Under the pieces are notes generated by a model that saw only the letters and a program-made list of their open reading frames with translations, ran no database searches and was not told the DNA's origin. From assembly GCA_937936275.1 (NCBI GenBank), contig CALHCJ010000154.1, positions 1-57,868 of the forward strand: DNA of 57,868 nucleotides, read 5' to 3'. Positions 41,022 to 45,765 of this stretch are shown one piece after another. Source of the stretch: an uncultured Flavobacteriaceae bacterium (GTDB lineage Bacteria > Bacteroidota > Bacteroidia > Flavobacteriales > Flavobacteriaceae). The first letter of the stretch is position 1. Each line of letters begins with the position of its first letter. A program made the position numbers and the translations under genes.

Positions 41022-42236
41022 ATGAATAAAACCATATTACATATTGATTTAGATACATTTTATGTTTCTGTAGAACGTTTATTGAATAGAGAATTACAGC
41101 ACAAACCATTACTGGTAGGTGGTATCAGTGATCGTGGCGTTGTTGCGGCTTGTAGTTATGAAACTCGAAGTTTTGGAGTTCATTCAGGCATGCCCATGCG
41201 AATGGCCAAAGAACTTTGCCCTGAAGCGGTAGTAATTCGTGGTAATTCGGGAGAGTATAGTAAACATTCTGATGTGGTTACTGAGATCATTAGAGAAGAA
41301 GTACCACTATTCGAAAAATCAAGCGTTGATGAGTTCTATGCTGACCTTTCAGGTATGGATCGCTTTTTTGGTTCTTACAAATTTGCATCTGAAATGCGCG
41401 ACCGTATTATTAACGAAACAGGTTTGCCTATTTCATTCGGACTGTCTTCTAACAAAGTAGTCTCAAAAGTGGCCACAGGTGAAGCAAAACCCAATAATAA
41501 AATCAAGGTCGATAAAGGTCTGGAAAAACCTTTTTTAGCACCACTTTCTATTAAAAAAATACCCATGGTAGGTGATAAAACTTATCAGACGCTGCGAAAC
41601 CTAGGCTTACGAAAAGTGCAAACAGTACAAGAAATGCCTATGGACGTTATGCAACGTGTGCTCGGTAAAAACGGTAGAGTCATTTGGAAACGTGCCAATG
41701 GTATTGACAATACTCCTGTAATACCATTTTGTGAACGAAAATCTATTTCTACAGAACGAACTTTTGATCTCGATACTATTGATGTACATAAGCTACGTGG
41801 CATTTTAATAGCAATGACCGAAAACCTAGCCTATCAATTACGCAGGGGTGAAAAATTGACGGCCTGTATTGCAGTCAAAATTCGATATTCTGATTTCAAC
41901 ACCTATTCAAAACAAATGCGTATTCCATATACCAGTGCTGATCATATTTTGATTCCAAAAATATTGGGGCTATTTAAAGCATTATATAACCGGCGATTAT
42001 TAGTTCGTTTGGTAGGTGTAAAATTTAGCCATTTGGTAGGTGGTAATTATCAGATTAACCTTTTTGATGATACCGAAGAAGTACTCAGTTTGTACAATGC
42101 TATGGATGCGATACGAAAACGGTACGGTGATAAAAGTGTACTAAGAGCTTCGGGTTTAGGTGCTCGAAGTGTGGGTAGATATAATAATCCATTTAATGGT
42201 CAGCCACCTTTGGTGTTGGCACATAGAAAACAATGA
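41022..42236 (+). CDS. dinB: Y-family DNA polymerase (Pol IV)
   Basis: Error-prone translesion polymerase, 404 aa. The catalytic acidic residues are present: D9 in IDLDTFY and D103-E104 in SSVDEFYADL, so the enzyme should be active, unlike ImuB. Finger/palm, thumb (helix-hairpin-helix, IKKIPMVGDKTYQTLRNLG) and little-finger domains follow. A sliding-clamp-binding motif QINLF occurs near residue 345. It heads an operon with dnaE, as in the ImuB-DnaE2-like mutasome cassettes of many bacteria, here without an imuA or recA homologue. Tandem near-palindromes upstream may be the operator. Confidence 0.93.
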   Translation: MNKTILHIDLDTFYVSVERLLNRELQHKPLLVGGISDRGVVAACSYETRSFGVHSGMPMRMAKELCPEAVVIRGNSGEYSKHSDVVTEIIREEVPLFEKSSVDEFYADLSGMDRFFGSYKFASEMRDRIINETGLPISFGLSSNKVVSKVATGEAKPNNKIKVDKGLEKPFLAPLSIKKIPMVGDKTYQTLRNLGLRKVQTVQEMPMDVMQRVLGKNGRVIWKRANGIDNTPVIPFCERKSISTERTFDLDTIDVHKLRGILIAMTENLAYQLRRGEKLTACIAVKIRYSDFNTYSKQMRIPYTSADHILIPKILGLFKALYNRRLLVRLVGVKFSHLVGGNYQINLFDDTEEVLSLYNAMDAIRKRYGDKSVLRASGLGARSVGRYNNPFNGQPPLVLAHRKQ

Positions 42237-42239
42237 TAA

Positions 42240-42268
42240 ATTCCAAATCATAAAATCCAAATTCCAAA
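42240..42268 (+). repeat. Left inverted repeat of the cassette
   Basis: Three GGAATTT-type heptamers read on the minus strand, separated by a variant heptamer. It pairs with 42682-42710 with two mismatches. Confidence 0.8.
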
Positions 42269-42272
42269 GCAT

Positions 42273-42647
42273 ATGAAGCAAAATACAGTTTACAATCTAG
42301 AGAACAGAACATATTTGTTTGCCAGAGAATGTCGATTTCTAATAAGAGAACTATCCAAAATTATAAATAATATTGAGGATGGAAAGCAACTGATAAGAGC
42401 TTCAGGGTCAGTAGGGGCAAATTACATTGAAGCTAATGAAAAACTGGGAGATAAAGATTTTTTGATGAGGACCAAAATTGCGAGAAAAGAATCTAAAGAA
42501 GCCGAATATTGGCTCAGACTTTTAAAAGATTTGAATAGTGATTATCAGGCGAAGGTGAAAGAATTAATTAAAGAAGCTGTTGAATTAAGAAGAATTTTGT
42601 CGGCTATTATTAATAAAAGATCAATTCCCAAGAATCAGTCACTATAA
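42273..42647 (+). CDS. Four-helix-bundle protein (S23/23S-rRNA IVP family)
   Basis: 124 aa, all helical, with the family signature RASGSVGANYIEANEKLGDKD followed by TKIARKESKEAEYWLRLL. The same fold is encoded by intervening sequences inside 23S rRNA genes of Leptospira, Coxiella and others, and resembles Avd of diversity-generating retroelements. It forms pentameric bundles that bind nucleic acid in Avd; here no retroelement is nearby. It sits alone inside a pair of inverted repeats in the dinB-dnaE gap, in the same direction as both. Function unknown. Confidence 0.88.
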   Translation: MKQNTVYNLENRTYLFARECRFLIRELSKIINNIEDGKQLIRASGSVGANYIEANEKLGDKDFLMRTKIARKESKEAEYWLRLLKDLNSDYQAKVKELIKEAVELRRILSAIINKRSIPKNQSL

Positions 42648-42681
42648 ATTATGAAATACTTTTAATTGTGAACGTTCGGAA

Positions 42682-42710
42682 TTTGGAATTTGGAATTTGT
42701 GATTTGGAAT
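42682..42710 (-). repeat. Right inverted repeat of the cassette
   Basis: Tandem heptamers GGAATTT, GGAATTT, GTGATTT, GGAATTT lead directly into the dnaE start at 42718. It pairs with 42240-42268. Confidence 0.8.
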
Positions 42711-42717
42711 TTGTACG

Positions 42718-45700
42718 ATGTATCTGAACTGTCATACATATTATAGCCTCCGTTATGGTACTTTTTCAGAGATAGAGCTTTTGAAGTTAGCACAAGAAAA
42801 TCATGTAAGTCAATTAGTACTTACTGATATTAATACTACTTCTGCAGGACTCAATTTTGTGCGAAAAGCGCCAGAATTCGGAATCACTCCAATATTAGGT
42901 ATTGATTTTAGAAACGGAGTAATACCATGTTTCATAGGTGTTGCCAAAAATAACCAGGGGTATTTAGAGCTGAATAATTTTCTTTCTGAGCATTTGCATC
43001 AAGACAAAGAGATACCGAAAATCGCTCCTGAGTTTAAGAATTCGTATGTCATCTATCCCTTTGATGTAGTGCTTCAAAATGAGATGACAACTTTCGCTTC
43101 ACATGAATTTATAGGTATTTCTATCGCTGATTTGCGTCGGTTACGTTTTTCGAGATTAATGGCCTATAAAACTAAATTAGTGGTACAACAACCTGTGACA
43201 TTTCGCAATAAACGTGATTTCAATGCTCATCGTTTATTGAGAGCTATTGATAATAATACCTTGCTCAGTAAACTTTCAACTACAGAACAAGCAAGTGAAG
43301 AAGAGAAGATGTTTCCTGTGCAGAACTTGGCGAAAGTCTTTGCTGAATATCCTTTTATTTTAGAAAACACAGAACGTTTGATGAATTCATGTTCTATTCG
43401 TTTTGATTTTTCTGAAGGAAGAAAACCACAGAATTTAACCAACTATTTGGACAGTAGAGAAGAAGACGAGAAATTGATTGAAAAGTTATGTCAAGATGGT
43501 TTGCCATACCGATACCCAGAACTGAATAAGGCGATCGAAAATAGAATAGAAAAAGAGCTAACACTTATCAAAGAAATGGGTTTTGTTTCCTATTTTTTGA
43601 TCAATTGGGATATTGTTTCTTACGCCCGAAAAGAAAAATTCTTTTATGTAGGGCGAGGTAGTGGAGCGAATAGTATTGTAGCATATCTATTACGCATTAC
43701 TGATGTCGACCCTATGGAACTCGATCTTTATTTTGAGCGATTCATCAATCTATATCGGGCAAACCCGCCTGACTTTGATATTGATTTTTCGCATCGCGAT
43801 CGGCCGATCATGACGCAGTATATTTTTGAGCGTTTTGAAAACGTTGCCTTATTAGGTACTTATGTCACCTTCAAATGGAGAGGTATGGTACGTGAATTGG
43901 GTAAGGTATTCGGTCTCCCAAAAGATGAAATTGATAATTTATGCGATGGAAATTTTCAAGCTTCCCGATTAGATGGCGTTTCTTCTTTGGTAGTGAAGTA
44001 TACTAAATTATTAGAAGGAATGCCCAATTATCTGAGTATTCACGCAGGCGGAATACTCATTAGTGAAAAACCCTTGCATTGGTTTTCTGCGACGCATTTA
44101 CCTCCGAAAGGATATCCAACAACGCAATACGATATGGTTATTGCTGAAGACGTAGGCTTATATAAGTTTGATATTTTAGGACAACGGGGTTTATCAAAAA
44201 TTAAAGAATCCATAACTATTTTAGAACAAACGCGCCCTGACGAATTTGCACAGTGGGATATTCATGATATTAAAAGATTTAAACGCGACCCGAAAATTAA
44301 TGAGCTTGTAAAAACAGCACAATGTATGGGTTGCTTTTATGTAGAGTCTCCAGCGATGCGCATGTTGCTCAAAAAACTAGAAGTTGATAATTACCTAGGG
44401 CTGGTAGCAGCAAGTTCTATCATTCGACCCGGAGTAGCAAAAAGCGGAATGATGCGAGAATATATTTTGCGACACCGTAATCCAGGTAGAACTGAAGAAA
44501 AAGCACATCCGGTAATGTTAGATATTATGCCTGATACGTATGGTGTTATGGTATATCAAGAAGATGTAATTAAAGTAGCGCATCATTTTGCAGGGCTTGA
44601 TTTAGGAGAGGCAGACGTGCTTCGTCGTGGTATGAGTGGTAAGTTTCGTTCGCGAGAAGAGTTTCAAAGAGTAGAGCAAAAGTTTATTGACAATTGCCGT
44701 CAGAAGGGCTATAAAGATGAACTTATTTTTGAAATATGGAATCAAGTTGCCAGTTTTGCGGGCTATGCTTTTGCTAAAGGTCATTCTGCTTCTTACGCGG
44801 TAGAGAGTTATCAAACCCTTTTTTTACGCGCTTATTTTCCGTTGGAATATATGGTAGCTGTACTAAATAATGGCGGTGGTTTTTATCGTTCAGAATTTTA
44901 TATTCATGAAGCTCGTATGTTAGGTGCTCAAATACATGCGCCATGTATTAATAAAAGTTTCGCAGCGAATTGTATTTATACGAAGCAGTTGTATTTGGGT
45001 TTTATGTATTTAAAAGAATTGGAAACTCGTGTTGTTGAACGTATTCTTAAAGAACGTATTCAAAATGGTATGTTTCTTTCTTTGGAAGATTTTCTAGATC
45101 GTGTTTTAATATCTATAGAGCAAGTAAGCATTTTGATTCGCATTGATGCATTTCGATTTACAGGAACGAATAAGCACGAACTTTTATGGAAGGCACACCT
45201 ATTTTTAAATAAAAATAGCAAAATTGATCATCCCAAGTTATTCAAACCTAAACATCAACATTTTGAAATTCCGAAATTAAATACAACTGATTTAGAGATG
45301 GCTTTTACACAATTAGAACTGTTAGGTTTTTGTTTGTGTAGTCCGTTTGAATTACTGGTAGAACCGCCAAAAAATAGTACAGGTAGTAAAGATCTCGAAC
45401 GCTATTTAAATAAACATATTGATATTTACGGCTATATGGTTACAGTGAAAAACACAAGTACCCATAATGGAAAACGGATGCATTTCGCAACTTTGGTCGA
45501 TCAGCAGGGTTTGGTTTTTGACACCGTGCTTTTTCCACCCGTAGCGGCCAAATACAAATTTCGGGGTCGAGGCATTTATCGCTTTTATGGTAAAGTAGTC
45601 AGCGAGTTCGGATTTTTGAGTATCGAAGTCATTAAAATGAGAAAAGAAGATTATGTGCCTGATCCTAGGTATGCAGATATGAAGACAACGACTAGAGAAC

Positions 45701-45765
45701 TTGGGTTTATACGAAAGAATGGGTCTTTATCAGATAGAGCATCTTCTTCTCTAGAAAAAGAATAA
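42718..45765 (+). CDS. dnaE: DNA polymerase III alpha-like subunit (DnaE2/ImuC type)
   Basis: 1015 aa C-family polymerase, shorter than replicative DnaE. A PHP domain at the N-terminus is degenerate (CHTYYSLRYGTFSE instead of HSxxSxxDG), so proofreading by it is unlikely. The polymerase core has the invariant aspartates D352/D354/D356 in PPDFDIDFS and D485 in KFDILGQRG; GRGSGANSIVAYLL and GYAFAKGHSASYA are typical. A helix-hairpin-helix and C-terminal OB fold follow (HIDIYGYMVTVKN). Together with dinB it forms a translesion-synthesis cassette, presumably damage-inducible. Its start codon is 7 bp after the cassette's right repeat. Confidence 0.92.
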   Translation: MYLNCHTYYSLRYGTFSEIELLKLAQENHVSQLVLTDINTTSAGLNFVRKAPEFGITPILGIDFRNGVIPCFIGVAKNNQGYLELNNFLSEHLHQDKEIPKIAPEFKNSYVIYPFDVVLQNEMTTFASHEFIGISIADLRRLRFSRLMAYKTKLVVQQPVTFRNKRDFNAHRLLRAIDNNTLLSKLSTTEQASEEEKMFPVQNLAKVFAEYPFILENTERLMNSCSIRFDFSEGRKPQNLTNYLDSREEDEKLIEKLCQDGLPYRYPELNKAIENRIEKELTLIKEMGFVSYFLINWDIVSYARKEKFFYVGRGSGANSIVAYLLRITDVDPMELDLYFERFINLYRANPPDFDIDFSHRDRPIMTQYIFERFENVALLGTYVTFKWRGMVRELGKVFGLPKDEIDNLCDGNFQASRLDGVSSLVVKYTKLLEGMPNYLSIHAGGILISEKPLHWFSATHLPPKGYPTTQYDMVIAEDVGLYKFDILGQRGLSKIKESITILEQTRPDEFAQWDIHDIKRFKRDPKINELVKTAQCMGCFYVESPAMRMLLKKLEVDNYLGLVAASSIIRPGVAKSGMMREYILRHRNPGRTEEKAHPVMLDIMPDTYGVMVYQEDVIKVAHHFAGLDLGEADVLRRGMSGKFRSREEFQRVEQKFIDNCRQKGYKDELIFEIWNQVASFAGYAFAKGHSASYAVESYQTLFLRAYFPLEYMVAVLNNGGGFYRSEFYIHEARMLGAQIHAPCINKSFAANCIYTKQLYLGFMYLKELETRVVERILKERIQNGMFLSLEDFLDRVLISIEQVSILIRIDAFRFTGTNKHELLWKAHLFLNKNSKIDHPKLFKPKHQHFEIPKLNTTDLEMAFTQLELLGFCLCSPFELLVEPPKNSTGSKDLERYLNKHIDIYGYMVTVKNTSTHNGKRMHFATLVDQQGLVFDTVLFPPVAAKYKFRGRGIYRFYGKVVSEFGFLSIEVIKMRKEDYVPDPRYADMKTTTRELGFIRKNGSLSDRASSSLEKE

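What the first reader, a model, noticed from the sequence alone, without database searches (positions are those of the whole stretch)
42240..42710. IVS-like four-helix-bundle cassette inserted between dinB and dnaE
Seen: 29-bp inverted repeats (27 matches), heptamer-built, enclose a single S23/IVP-type gene and fill the dinB-dnaE gap to within 4-7 bp. Known: homologous ORFs lie in 23S rRNA intervening sequences, whose flanking inverted repeats form a stem that RNases remove. Inference: this is the same kind of element living in an mRNA. The long stem could be cleaved between dinB and dnaE, uncoupling expression or stability of the two polymerases. With no transposase its mode of spread is unexplained.
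Basis: partly seen in the sequence, partly recalled or inferred. Interest (0 to 1): 0.7.

Follow-up and report, generated by a model that had tools for sequence, protein, structure and literature searches.

The report
Heptad-armed gene cassette inside an operon
A small gene sits between two DNA-polymerase genes, framed by mirror-image stretches built from a repeated seven-letter word, and the same layout, with different words, surrounds many relatives of this gene inside operons of several bacterial groups, which suggests that the protein reads the word.

Summary
A 124-aa IVP/S23-family gene (42273-42647) lies between inverted arms 42238-42268 and 42682-42712 (29 of 31 nt matching) that fill the dinB-dnaE gap to within 1 and 5 nt. 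It is not an isolated oddity. Of 166 IVP genes from the own and related genomes, 67% are flanked by 7-nt-periodic arrays (shuffled flanks 0%; other periods 2-6%, period 8 20%), as are 14 of 21 elements from other phyla. The gene is co-directional with both neighbours in 155 of 161 classified cases, against 139 of 267 small genes. In elements with strong arms, the arms tend to begin at the upstream stop and end at the downstream start. The word differs between elements, is shared by both arms, follows protein relatedness even at different sites, and recurs in nearby gene-free arrays. The protein is under purifying selection. Best reading: a pentameric protein reads its heptad array and controls expression at operon junctions. 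Against it: no G-U wobble signature, and the window's arms have the minority orientation. IVS-like RNase cutting and a mobile-DNA origin remain open. Ten paper searches found no description of this layout.

The parts
41022..42236 (+). dinB, DNA polymerase IV family, upstream neighbour
   Evidence: IMS and IMS_C Pfam hits
42238..42268 (+). 5' arm: heptad array AAATTCC AAATCAT AAAATCC AAATTCC AAA; starts 1 nt after the dinB stop codon, ends 4 nt before the IVP start codon
   Evidence: little changed in L019 although synonymous sites of the gene are near saturation (pS 0.73)
42273..42647 (+). IVP/S23-family four-helix-bundle gene, 124 aa
   Evidence: PF05635 58 bits, TIGR02436 73.3 bits; AlphaFold2 mean pLDDT 92, four helices; best Foldseek matches 2rld, 2gsc, then Avd/DGR entries
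42682..42712 (+). 3' arm: heptad array TTTGGAA TTTGGAA TTTGTGA TTTGGAA TTT; ends 5 nt before the dnaE start codon
   Evidence: pairs with the 5' arm in the predicted fold
42718..45765 (+). dnaE-like DNA polymerase III alpha (1015 aa), downstream neighbour
   Evidence: Pfam and NCBIfam hits

Best explanation
Shown by sequence: the element belongs to a widespread class of operon-junction cassettes, each with an IVP/S23-family gene between two inverted arrays of mostly 3-6 heptads. The heptad word is shared by both arms, differs between elements and tracks protein relatedness. In strong elements the arms tend to abut the upstream stop codon and the downstream start codon. Inferred: the protein is a ring-shaped pentamer, like its solved relatives, that binds the heptad array of its own transcript, one heptad per subunit. 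By binding, it opens or holds the stem formed by the two arms. In the window the 5' arm ends beside the IVP start codon and the 3' arm beside the dnaE start codon, so binding would set IVP translation (autoregulation) and translation or stability of dnaE. It may also act on gene-free arrays with a similar word at nearby junctions.
For: Period-7 arrays flank 67% of 166 IVP genes, 0.73 of 70 named-loci elements (nearly all Bacteroidota) and 14 of 21 elements from other phyla. Heptads per arm: median 4.6, with 4 and 5 the commonest counts of 360 arrays; two solved relatives list 5 chains each. Co-directional with both neighbours: 155 of 161 vs 139 of 267 small genes, and 103 of 114 in the phylum-wide and named set. 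Upstream stop to 5' arm median 2 nt, 3' arm to next start median 8 nt (121 co-directional elements with strong arms). Word similarity rises with protein identity at different sites (0.43 to 0.61), while same-genome different-site pairs stay at 0.40-0.45 except one pair at 0.61; partial Mantel r 0.241, permuted maximum 0.120. Own arms match better than arms of same-site orthologues (12.9 vs 9.7 in 10 site clusters). 94 gene-free arrays resemble the local IVP word (0.64 vs 0.52). dN/dS 0.03-0.10 in 7 pairs. Homology to Avd, part of the DGR ribonucleoprotein.
Against: No G-U wobble excess in arm mismatches (242 G-U vs 316 A-C, 218 elements), which argues against selection on RNA pairing as such. 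The window is one of 12 of 117 heptad elements with reversed arm composition. About a third of elements lack clear arrays. The 5' arm lies within 25 nt of the IVP start codon in only 47% of 114 elements (median 29 nt), and the 3' arm within 25 nt of the next start in 60% of 121, so the proposed control is not anatomically general. Arrays also occur where no IVP gene was found (3 of 18 genomes with TAACTGA arrays). Nucleic-acid binding and pentamer formation of this protein were not tested.
Confidence: 0.4

Rival explanations
1. IVS-like element in mRNA: the arms form a long duplex that RNase III cuts, separating dinB and dnaE transcripts as happens to 23S rRNA intervening sequences. The encoded protein is secondary.
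For: Same protein family as rRNA IVS ORFs; arms 24-36 nt long (quartiles); the window RNA folds with the arms paired, z -5.97; RNase III excises the Coxiella IVS (abstract of PMC4990558).
Against: No G-U signature. Strong purifying selection on the protein in the 7 pairs tested, whereas the Coxiella ORF is described as undergoing reductive evolution. RNase III cutting would not need a 7-nt period or a word that follows the protein. None of the 17 sources scanned (window and 16 loci) has an rRNA match.
Confidence: 0.2
2. Selfish mobile DNA cassette: the arms are terminal sites recognised by the IVP protein (perhaps with a host enzyme) for insertion into DNA. The orientation bias arises because the promoterless gene survives only inside operons.
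For: 0 to 19 copies per genome; presence/absence at dinB-dnaE; one clade (CAGT word) sits at several different junctions; gene-free relatives of the arms exist; absence of a wobble signature is expected for DNA-level recognition.
Against: Most IVP pairs above 70% identity have similar neighbouring ORFs (140 of 148 pairs of heptad elements), so movement is rare or ancient. No transposase lies in the window's element and I saw no target duplication. Gene-free arrays still follow a stop/start orientation rule (Fisher p 4e-5), which the need to express the gene cannot explain.
Confidence: 0.25
3. Neutral or generic heptad repeats: replication slippage makes 7-nt arrays in short operon gaps and the IVP gene merely happens to sit among them.
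For: Gene-free arrays are common in some genomes; long perfect single-orientation arrays exist; 20 arrays away from IVP genes lie inside ORFs.
Against: Arrays concentrate at IVP genes (lag 7: 249 near vs 126 elsewhere in 1478 kb; lag 9: 22 vs 81). The inverted arrangement, the protein-word correlation and arm co-variation are not explained by slippage. GTTGnnn arrays occur in 29 of 41 genomes with IVP genes vs 2 of 18 without, though genome size is a confounder.
Confidence: 0.08

Closest known systems
23S rRNA intervening sequences (IVS) with S23/IVP ORF
   Same: Same protein family; ORF enclosed by an inverted repeat that can form a stem.
   Different: Here the element lies between protein genes, the arms are period-7 word arrays, and the protein is under strong purifying selection in the pairs tested.
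TAACTGA heptamer direct repeats of Beggiatoaceae, Cyanobacteria and five Bacteroidetes (MacGregor 2015, PMC4679880; abstract and passages read)
   Same: 7-nt direct repeats, in the main genome mostly just upstream of start codons; a post-transcriptional binder was proposed but not identified (S1, Csp, Csr named as candidates).
   Different: One fixed word; 'S23' occurs 0 times in its main text. Here many words, inverted pairs, and a gene that tracks the word. In Bacteroidota, 2 of 20 examined loci with TAACTGA arrays carry the array beside an IVP gene.
Avd of diversity-generating retroelements
   Same: Homologous fold; PHROG 'Avd protein of DGR' hit for two of three IVP proteins; Foldseek lists 4dwl and the DGR ribonucleoprotein 8ub7 (E 0.06-0.2).
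   Different: Immediate neighbours are dinB and dnaE, not a reverse transcriptase; the window protein itself had no PHROG hit.
TRAP (trp RNA-binding attenuation protein), recalled from general knowledge
   Same: Would work alike: a ring oligomer reading one short tandem RNA motif per subunit beside a start codon.
   Different: Unrelated fold; repeats in TRAP targets are shorter than 7 nt (recalled); no evidence of ligand control here.

Membership tests
PF05635 / TIGR02436 (23S rRNA IVP, four helix bundle protein) | Score above curated cut-off | tested here: met
   58 vs 33.8 bits; 73.3 vs 24 bits
PF05635 / TIGR02436 (23S rRNA IVP, four helix bundle protein) | Four-helix bundle fold of 2rld/2gsc type | tested here: met
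   Predicted model, pLDDT 92, four helices; 2rld TM 0.77-0.80
PF05635 / TIGR02436 (23S rRNA IVP, four helix bundle protein) | Homopentamer | not testable with these tools
   Only that 2gsc and 2rld each list 5 chains
rRNA intervening sequence (IVS) | Lies inside an rRNA gene | tested here: not met
   Between dinB and dnaE; no rRNA match in the window or 16 loci
rRNA intervening sequence (IVS) | Flanking inverted repeat able to form a stem | tested here: met
   29 of 31 nt; fold z -5.97
rRNA intervening sequence (IVS) | Excised from the transcript by RNase III | not testable with these tools
   Needs RNA
DGR Avd | Works with a neighbouring reverse transcriptase and template/variable repeats | tested here: not met
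   Immediate neighbours are dinB and dnaE; a reverse transcriptase elsewhere in the genome was not searched for
Transposon or MITE | Transposase within the element | tested here: not met
   The only ORF of 80 aa or more between the arms is the IVP gene
Transposon or MITE | Target-site duplication and clean empty site | tested here: inconclusive
   Empty gaps in 10 close relatives contain unrelated or other-word spacer
TAACTGA-type heptamer repeats | 7-nt direct repeats just upstream of start codons | tested here: met
   3' arm ends 5 nt before dnaE; word differs from TAACTGA

The most novel reading that the evidence does not exclude
IVP/S23 proteins are a bacteria-wide family of word-coded nucleic-acid readers: each clade forms a ring that recognises its own 7-nt word, repeated about five times per arm, and regulates genes at the operon junctions where its arrays stand, in cis and at nearby gene-free arrays. 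This could also supply the missing binder of the TAACTGA repeats.
Probability: 0.3. Interest if true: 0.92.

Novelty: new variant of a known kind. Interest (0 to 1): 0.78.

Why it matters
IVP/S23 genes are found in 147 of 199 sampled genomes of the window's family and 116 of 148 of its phylum, up to 19 per genome, and the two solved structures are labelled as of unknown or hypothetical function. A period-7 word shared by both arms and following the protein gives a directly testable code: protein sequence predicts nucleic-acid word. If right, it explains a large family of unknown proteins, identifies a new layer of control inside housekeeping operons (ffh-folD, hemCD-hemE, metH, a thiolase junction, dinB-dnaE), and may bear on the unexplained heptamer repeats of giant sulfur bacteria.

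Tried and rejected
G-U wobble test for RNA-level selection: negative, reported as evidence against. TAACTGA prediction: 18 of 395 genomes carry triple TAACTGA; 15 of these 18 have an IVP match (13 above the cut-off), hardly more than the phylum rate of 116 of 148 (113 above the cut-off); only 2 of the 20 examined loci have the array beside an IVP gene. This neither proves nor excludes the link. Attempt to show a clean empty site: the close empty gaps differ too much. Defence and phage library scans of three IVP proteins: no PADLOC hit; PHROG Avd hit for two of three, none for the window protein. Rfam: nothing at the element. Corrected on checking: one search printed a gap of 0 for seven loci in which dinB in fact lies downstream of dnaE. 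The first solo-array test wrongly counted some IVP arms as solo and was replaced. The first Mantel test had undefined values from masked sequence and was replaced.

The shuffled value is the mean of five shuffles per element, which narrows its spread. 'Same site' means similar ORFs on at least one side. The GTTG pattern read backwards is the same pattern, so its built-in control was uninformative. Only part of the IVP places listed was fetched and analysed, and the lists are themselves cut. Searches used the 166 elements; one search analysed 120 further elements, and searches used all 286, of which 191 had arrays usable. Assignment loci to phyla was by record title.

Literature: 10 searches in an open-access library without most subscription papers. 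Papers: PMC4679880 abstract and passages; PMC4990558 abstract and outline; PMC11270868 and PMC6749651 passages; all others search listing only, including PMC11637426, which holds the phrase 'intervening sequence protein'. TRAP and the pentameric state are recalled, except the five chains per entry.

Full report
CHECK. The arms, gene and tight spacing are as described. The arms are 31 nt with 29 matches, four heptads plus three bases each. In the predicted RNA fold of 42231-42722 the arms pair with each other (z -5.97 against 100 shuffles). The search of the own genome with this stretch matched only this site; that genome holds four other IVP genes.

THE JUNCTION IN RELATIVES. Of 30 dnaE loci taken from relatives and the own genome (L009-L038), 20 have dinB upstream, 7 have dinB downstream of dnaE, and 3 have none in the stretch (one search had shown the seven as gaps of 0). 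Of the 20, the window's genome, L019 and L015 carry an IVP gene in the gap. L019 has the same word (AAATTCC AAATCAT ...); L015 keeps an open reading frame (55% identical to the window's) and a trace of the word (AAATTCCAAAA), but its best inverted repeat (score 11.5) is not built of it. Ten close relatives have no gene and gaps of 33-235 nt; 7 more distant ones have gaps of 0-28 nt. Three close empty gaps (L010, L011, L014) hold short hairpins of a different, GTTG-type word (read by eye), and L012 and L021 hold other heptad arrays. Window and L019 IVP proteins are 78% identical, as are their DnaE proteins, so descent with several losses is at least as likely as fresh insertion. Between them the 5' arm is little changed although synonymous sites of the gene are near saturation (pS 0.73).

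THE CLASS. The other IVP genes of the own genome already suggested a rule: two of the four (L006, L007) have clear arms of other words, two (L004, L005) do not. In 77 IVP genes from the window's genome and its relatives, inverted repeats of score 14 or more within 350 nt occur in 42%, against 6% of 284 control genes, and the arms self-match at 7, 14 and 21 nt. In 166 genes from a wider sample, the best 35-nt windows match at lag 7 with 0.60 against 0.43 shuffled; 67% pass a threshold that 0% of the shuffled averages pass. Period 8 is the only other lag with a clear signal (20%). In the phylum sample 0.55 of 29 elements pass; among the named loci 0.73 of 70 mostly Bacteroidota elements and 14 of 21 elements from elsewhere, from Gracilibacteria to Acidobacteria, pass.

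PLACE AND ORIENTATION. 155 of 161 classified genes (5 of 166 unclassified) point the same way as both neighbours, against 139 of 267 small genes and 354 of 650 genes; in the phylum-wide and named set it is 103 of 114. Among 121 co-directional elements with strong arms, the 5' arm starts a median 2 nt after the upstream stop and the 3' arm ends a median 8 nt before the next start (60% within 25 nt); the 5' arm ends a median 29 nt before the IVP start codon (47% of 114 within 25 nt). In 102 of 117 heptad elements the 5' arm word is richer in G than C; the window is one of 12 exceptions. For 10 loci I identified neighbours: ffh and folD (own L006, and L101), hemCD and hemE, two metH-like parts, panB and a pseudouridine synthase, enoyl-CoA hydratase and thiolase, ruvC and a radical SAM gene, among others.

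WORD AND PROTEIN. Clades of IVP protein share a word core: CAGTnnn, GTTGnnn, TTAGGnn, CAAGAAT, AAATTCC. Most close pairs are orthologues at the same site, so I removed pairs with similar neighbouring ORFs. At different sites and in different genomes, word similarity still climbs from 0.43 (identity under 30%) to 0.52 (60-70%, 89 pairs) and 0.61 (over 70%, 8 pairs), while different-site pairs within one genome stay at 0.40-0.45 apart from a single pair at 0.61. After removing the effect of arm GC content, r is 0.241 against a permuted maximum of 0.120 in 300 permutations. In ten site clusters of four or more, an element's own two arms fit each other better than they fit the arms of orthologues (12.9 vs 9.7), so the two arms change together. 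Seven orthologue pairs show dN/dS of 0.03-0.10, several with saturated dS.

GENE-FREE ARRAYS. Heptad arrays also occur without the gene. GTTGnnn arrays occur in 29 of 41 genomes with IVP genes and 2 of 18 without; genome size differs between the groups. Among arrays away from IVP genes in co-directional junctions and with a clear G or C excess, G-rich ones lie nearer the preceding stop than the following start (20 vs 2) and C-rich ones more often nearer the start (26 vs 15) (Fisher p 4e-5). Twenty arrays away from IVP genes lie inside ORFs, 9 between convergent and 5 between divergent genes. 94 such arrays in 50 loci near a heptad IVP gene resemble its word more than words of other loci (0.64 vs 0.52; 48% beat at least nine tenths of the others). 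In locus L295 five arrays within about 2 kb resemble the word of the IVP arms.

MECHANISM. What is shown: a gene and two arrays that evolve as one unit, at operon junctions, in one orientation, with the gene under selection. What is inferred: the protein reads the word. Its solved relatives have five chains per entry and the family is homologous to Avd, a member of the DGR ribonucleoprotein; the arrays have most often four or five heptads. A pentamer reading one heptad per subunit is the simplest fit. The position near stop and start codons in transcription orientation, even for gene-free arrays, points to the transcript rather than to DNA. The strongest result against an RNA stem as the selected feature is the lack of G-U excess (242 vs 316). 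It is compatible with recognition of the arms as words (in DNA or in single strands) rather than as a helix. I therefore keep a DNA-level mobile cassette and an IVS-like RNase substrate as live rivals.

NOVELTY. IVP genes in rRNA are known (PMC4990558, PMC11270868), and heptamer repeats before start codons are known for one word (PMC4679880), whose author looked for a binder among S1, Csp and Csr proteins. I found no text that joins the two or describes heptad arms around IVP genes in the 10 searches made, in a library that lacks most subscription journals.

Noticed in passing
L353:1856-1931 and 2849-2968 (G001): Two gene-free heptad hairpins of the GTTG word at co-directional gene junctions; the same contig carries a GTTG-word IVP element (L042) about 7-8 kb away.
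   Followed up: partly
L357:1500-1666 (G007): A heptad hairpin of the GTTG word lies inside a 465-aa ORF that reads like the GTPase MnmE (motif recalled, not searched).
   Followed up: no
L295: Five heptad arrays within about 2 kb of an IVP element resemble its arms, in an Acetothermia contig.
   Followed up: partly
L361, L363, L376: Long heptad arrays (9 to 16 copies) with no inverted partner seen; in L361 the array ends 8 nt before a start codon, in L376 a TAACTGA array downstream of an IVP gene runs into one.
   Followed up: partly
L025, L027, L028, L030-L033: In these relatives the order is dnaE then dinB, the reverse of the window's.
   Followed up: no
L017 dinB-dnaE gap; L060 IVP flanks: Other hairpin-type repeats, apparently not heptad-built, occupy the same kinds of junction.
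   Followed up: no
window 41022-45765: dinB followed by a short (1015 aa) dnaE-like gene, while relatives also have a longer DnaE (about 1450-1500 aa); looks like an inducible mutagenesis pair (inference).
   Followed up: no
G003, G013, G019, G039 and others: Several IVP genes carry internal stops, so decayed and intact copies coexist in one genome.
   Followed up: no
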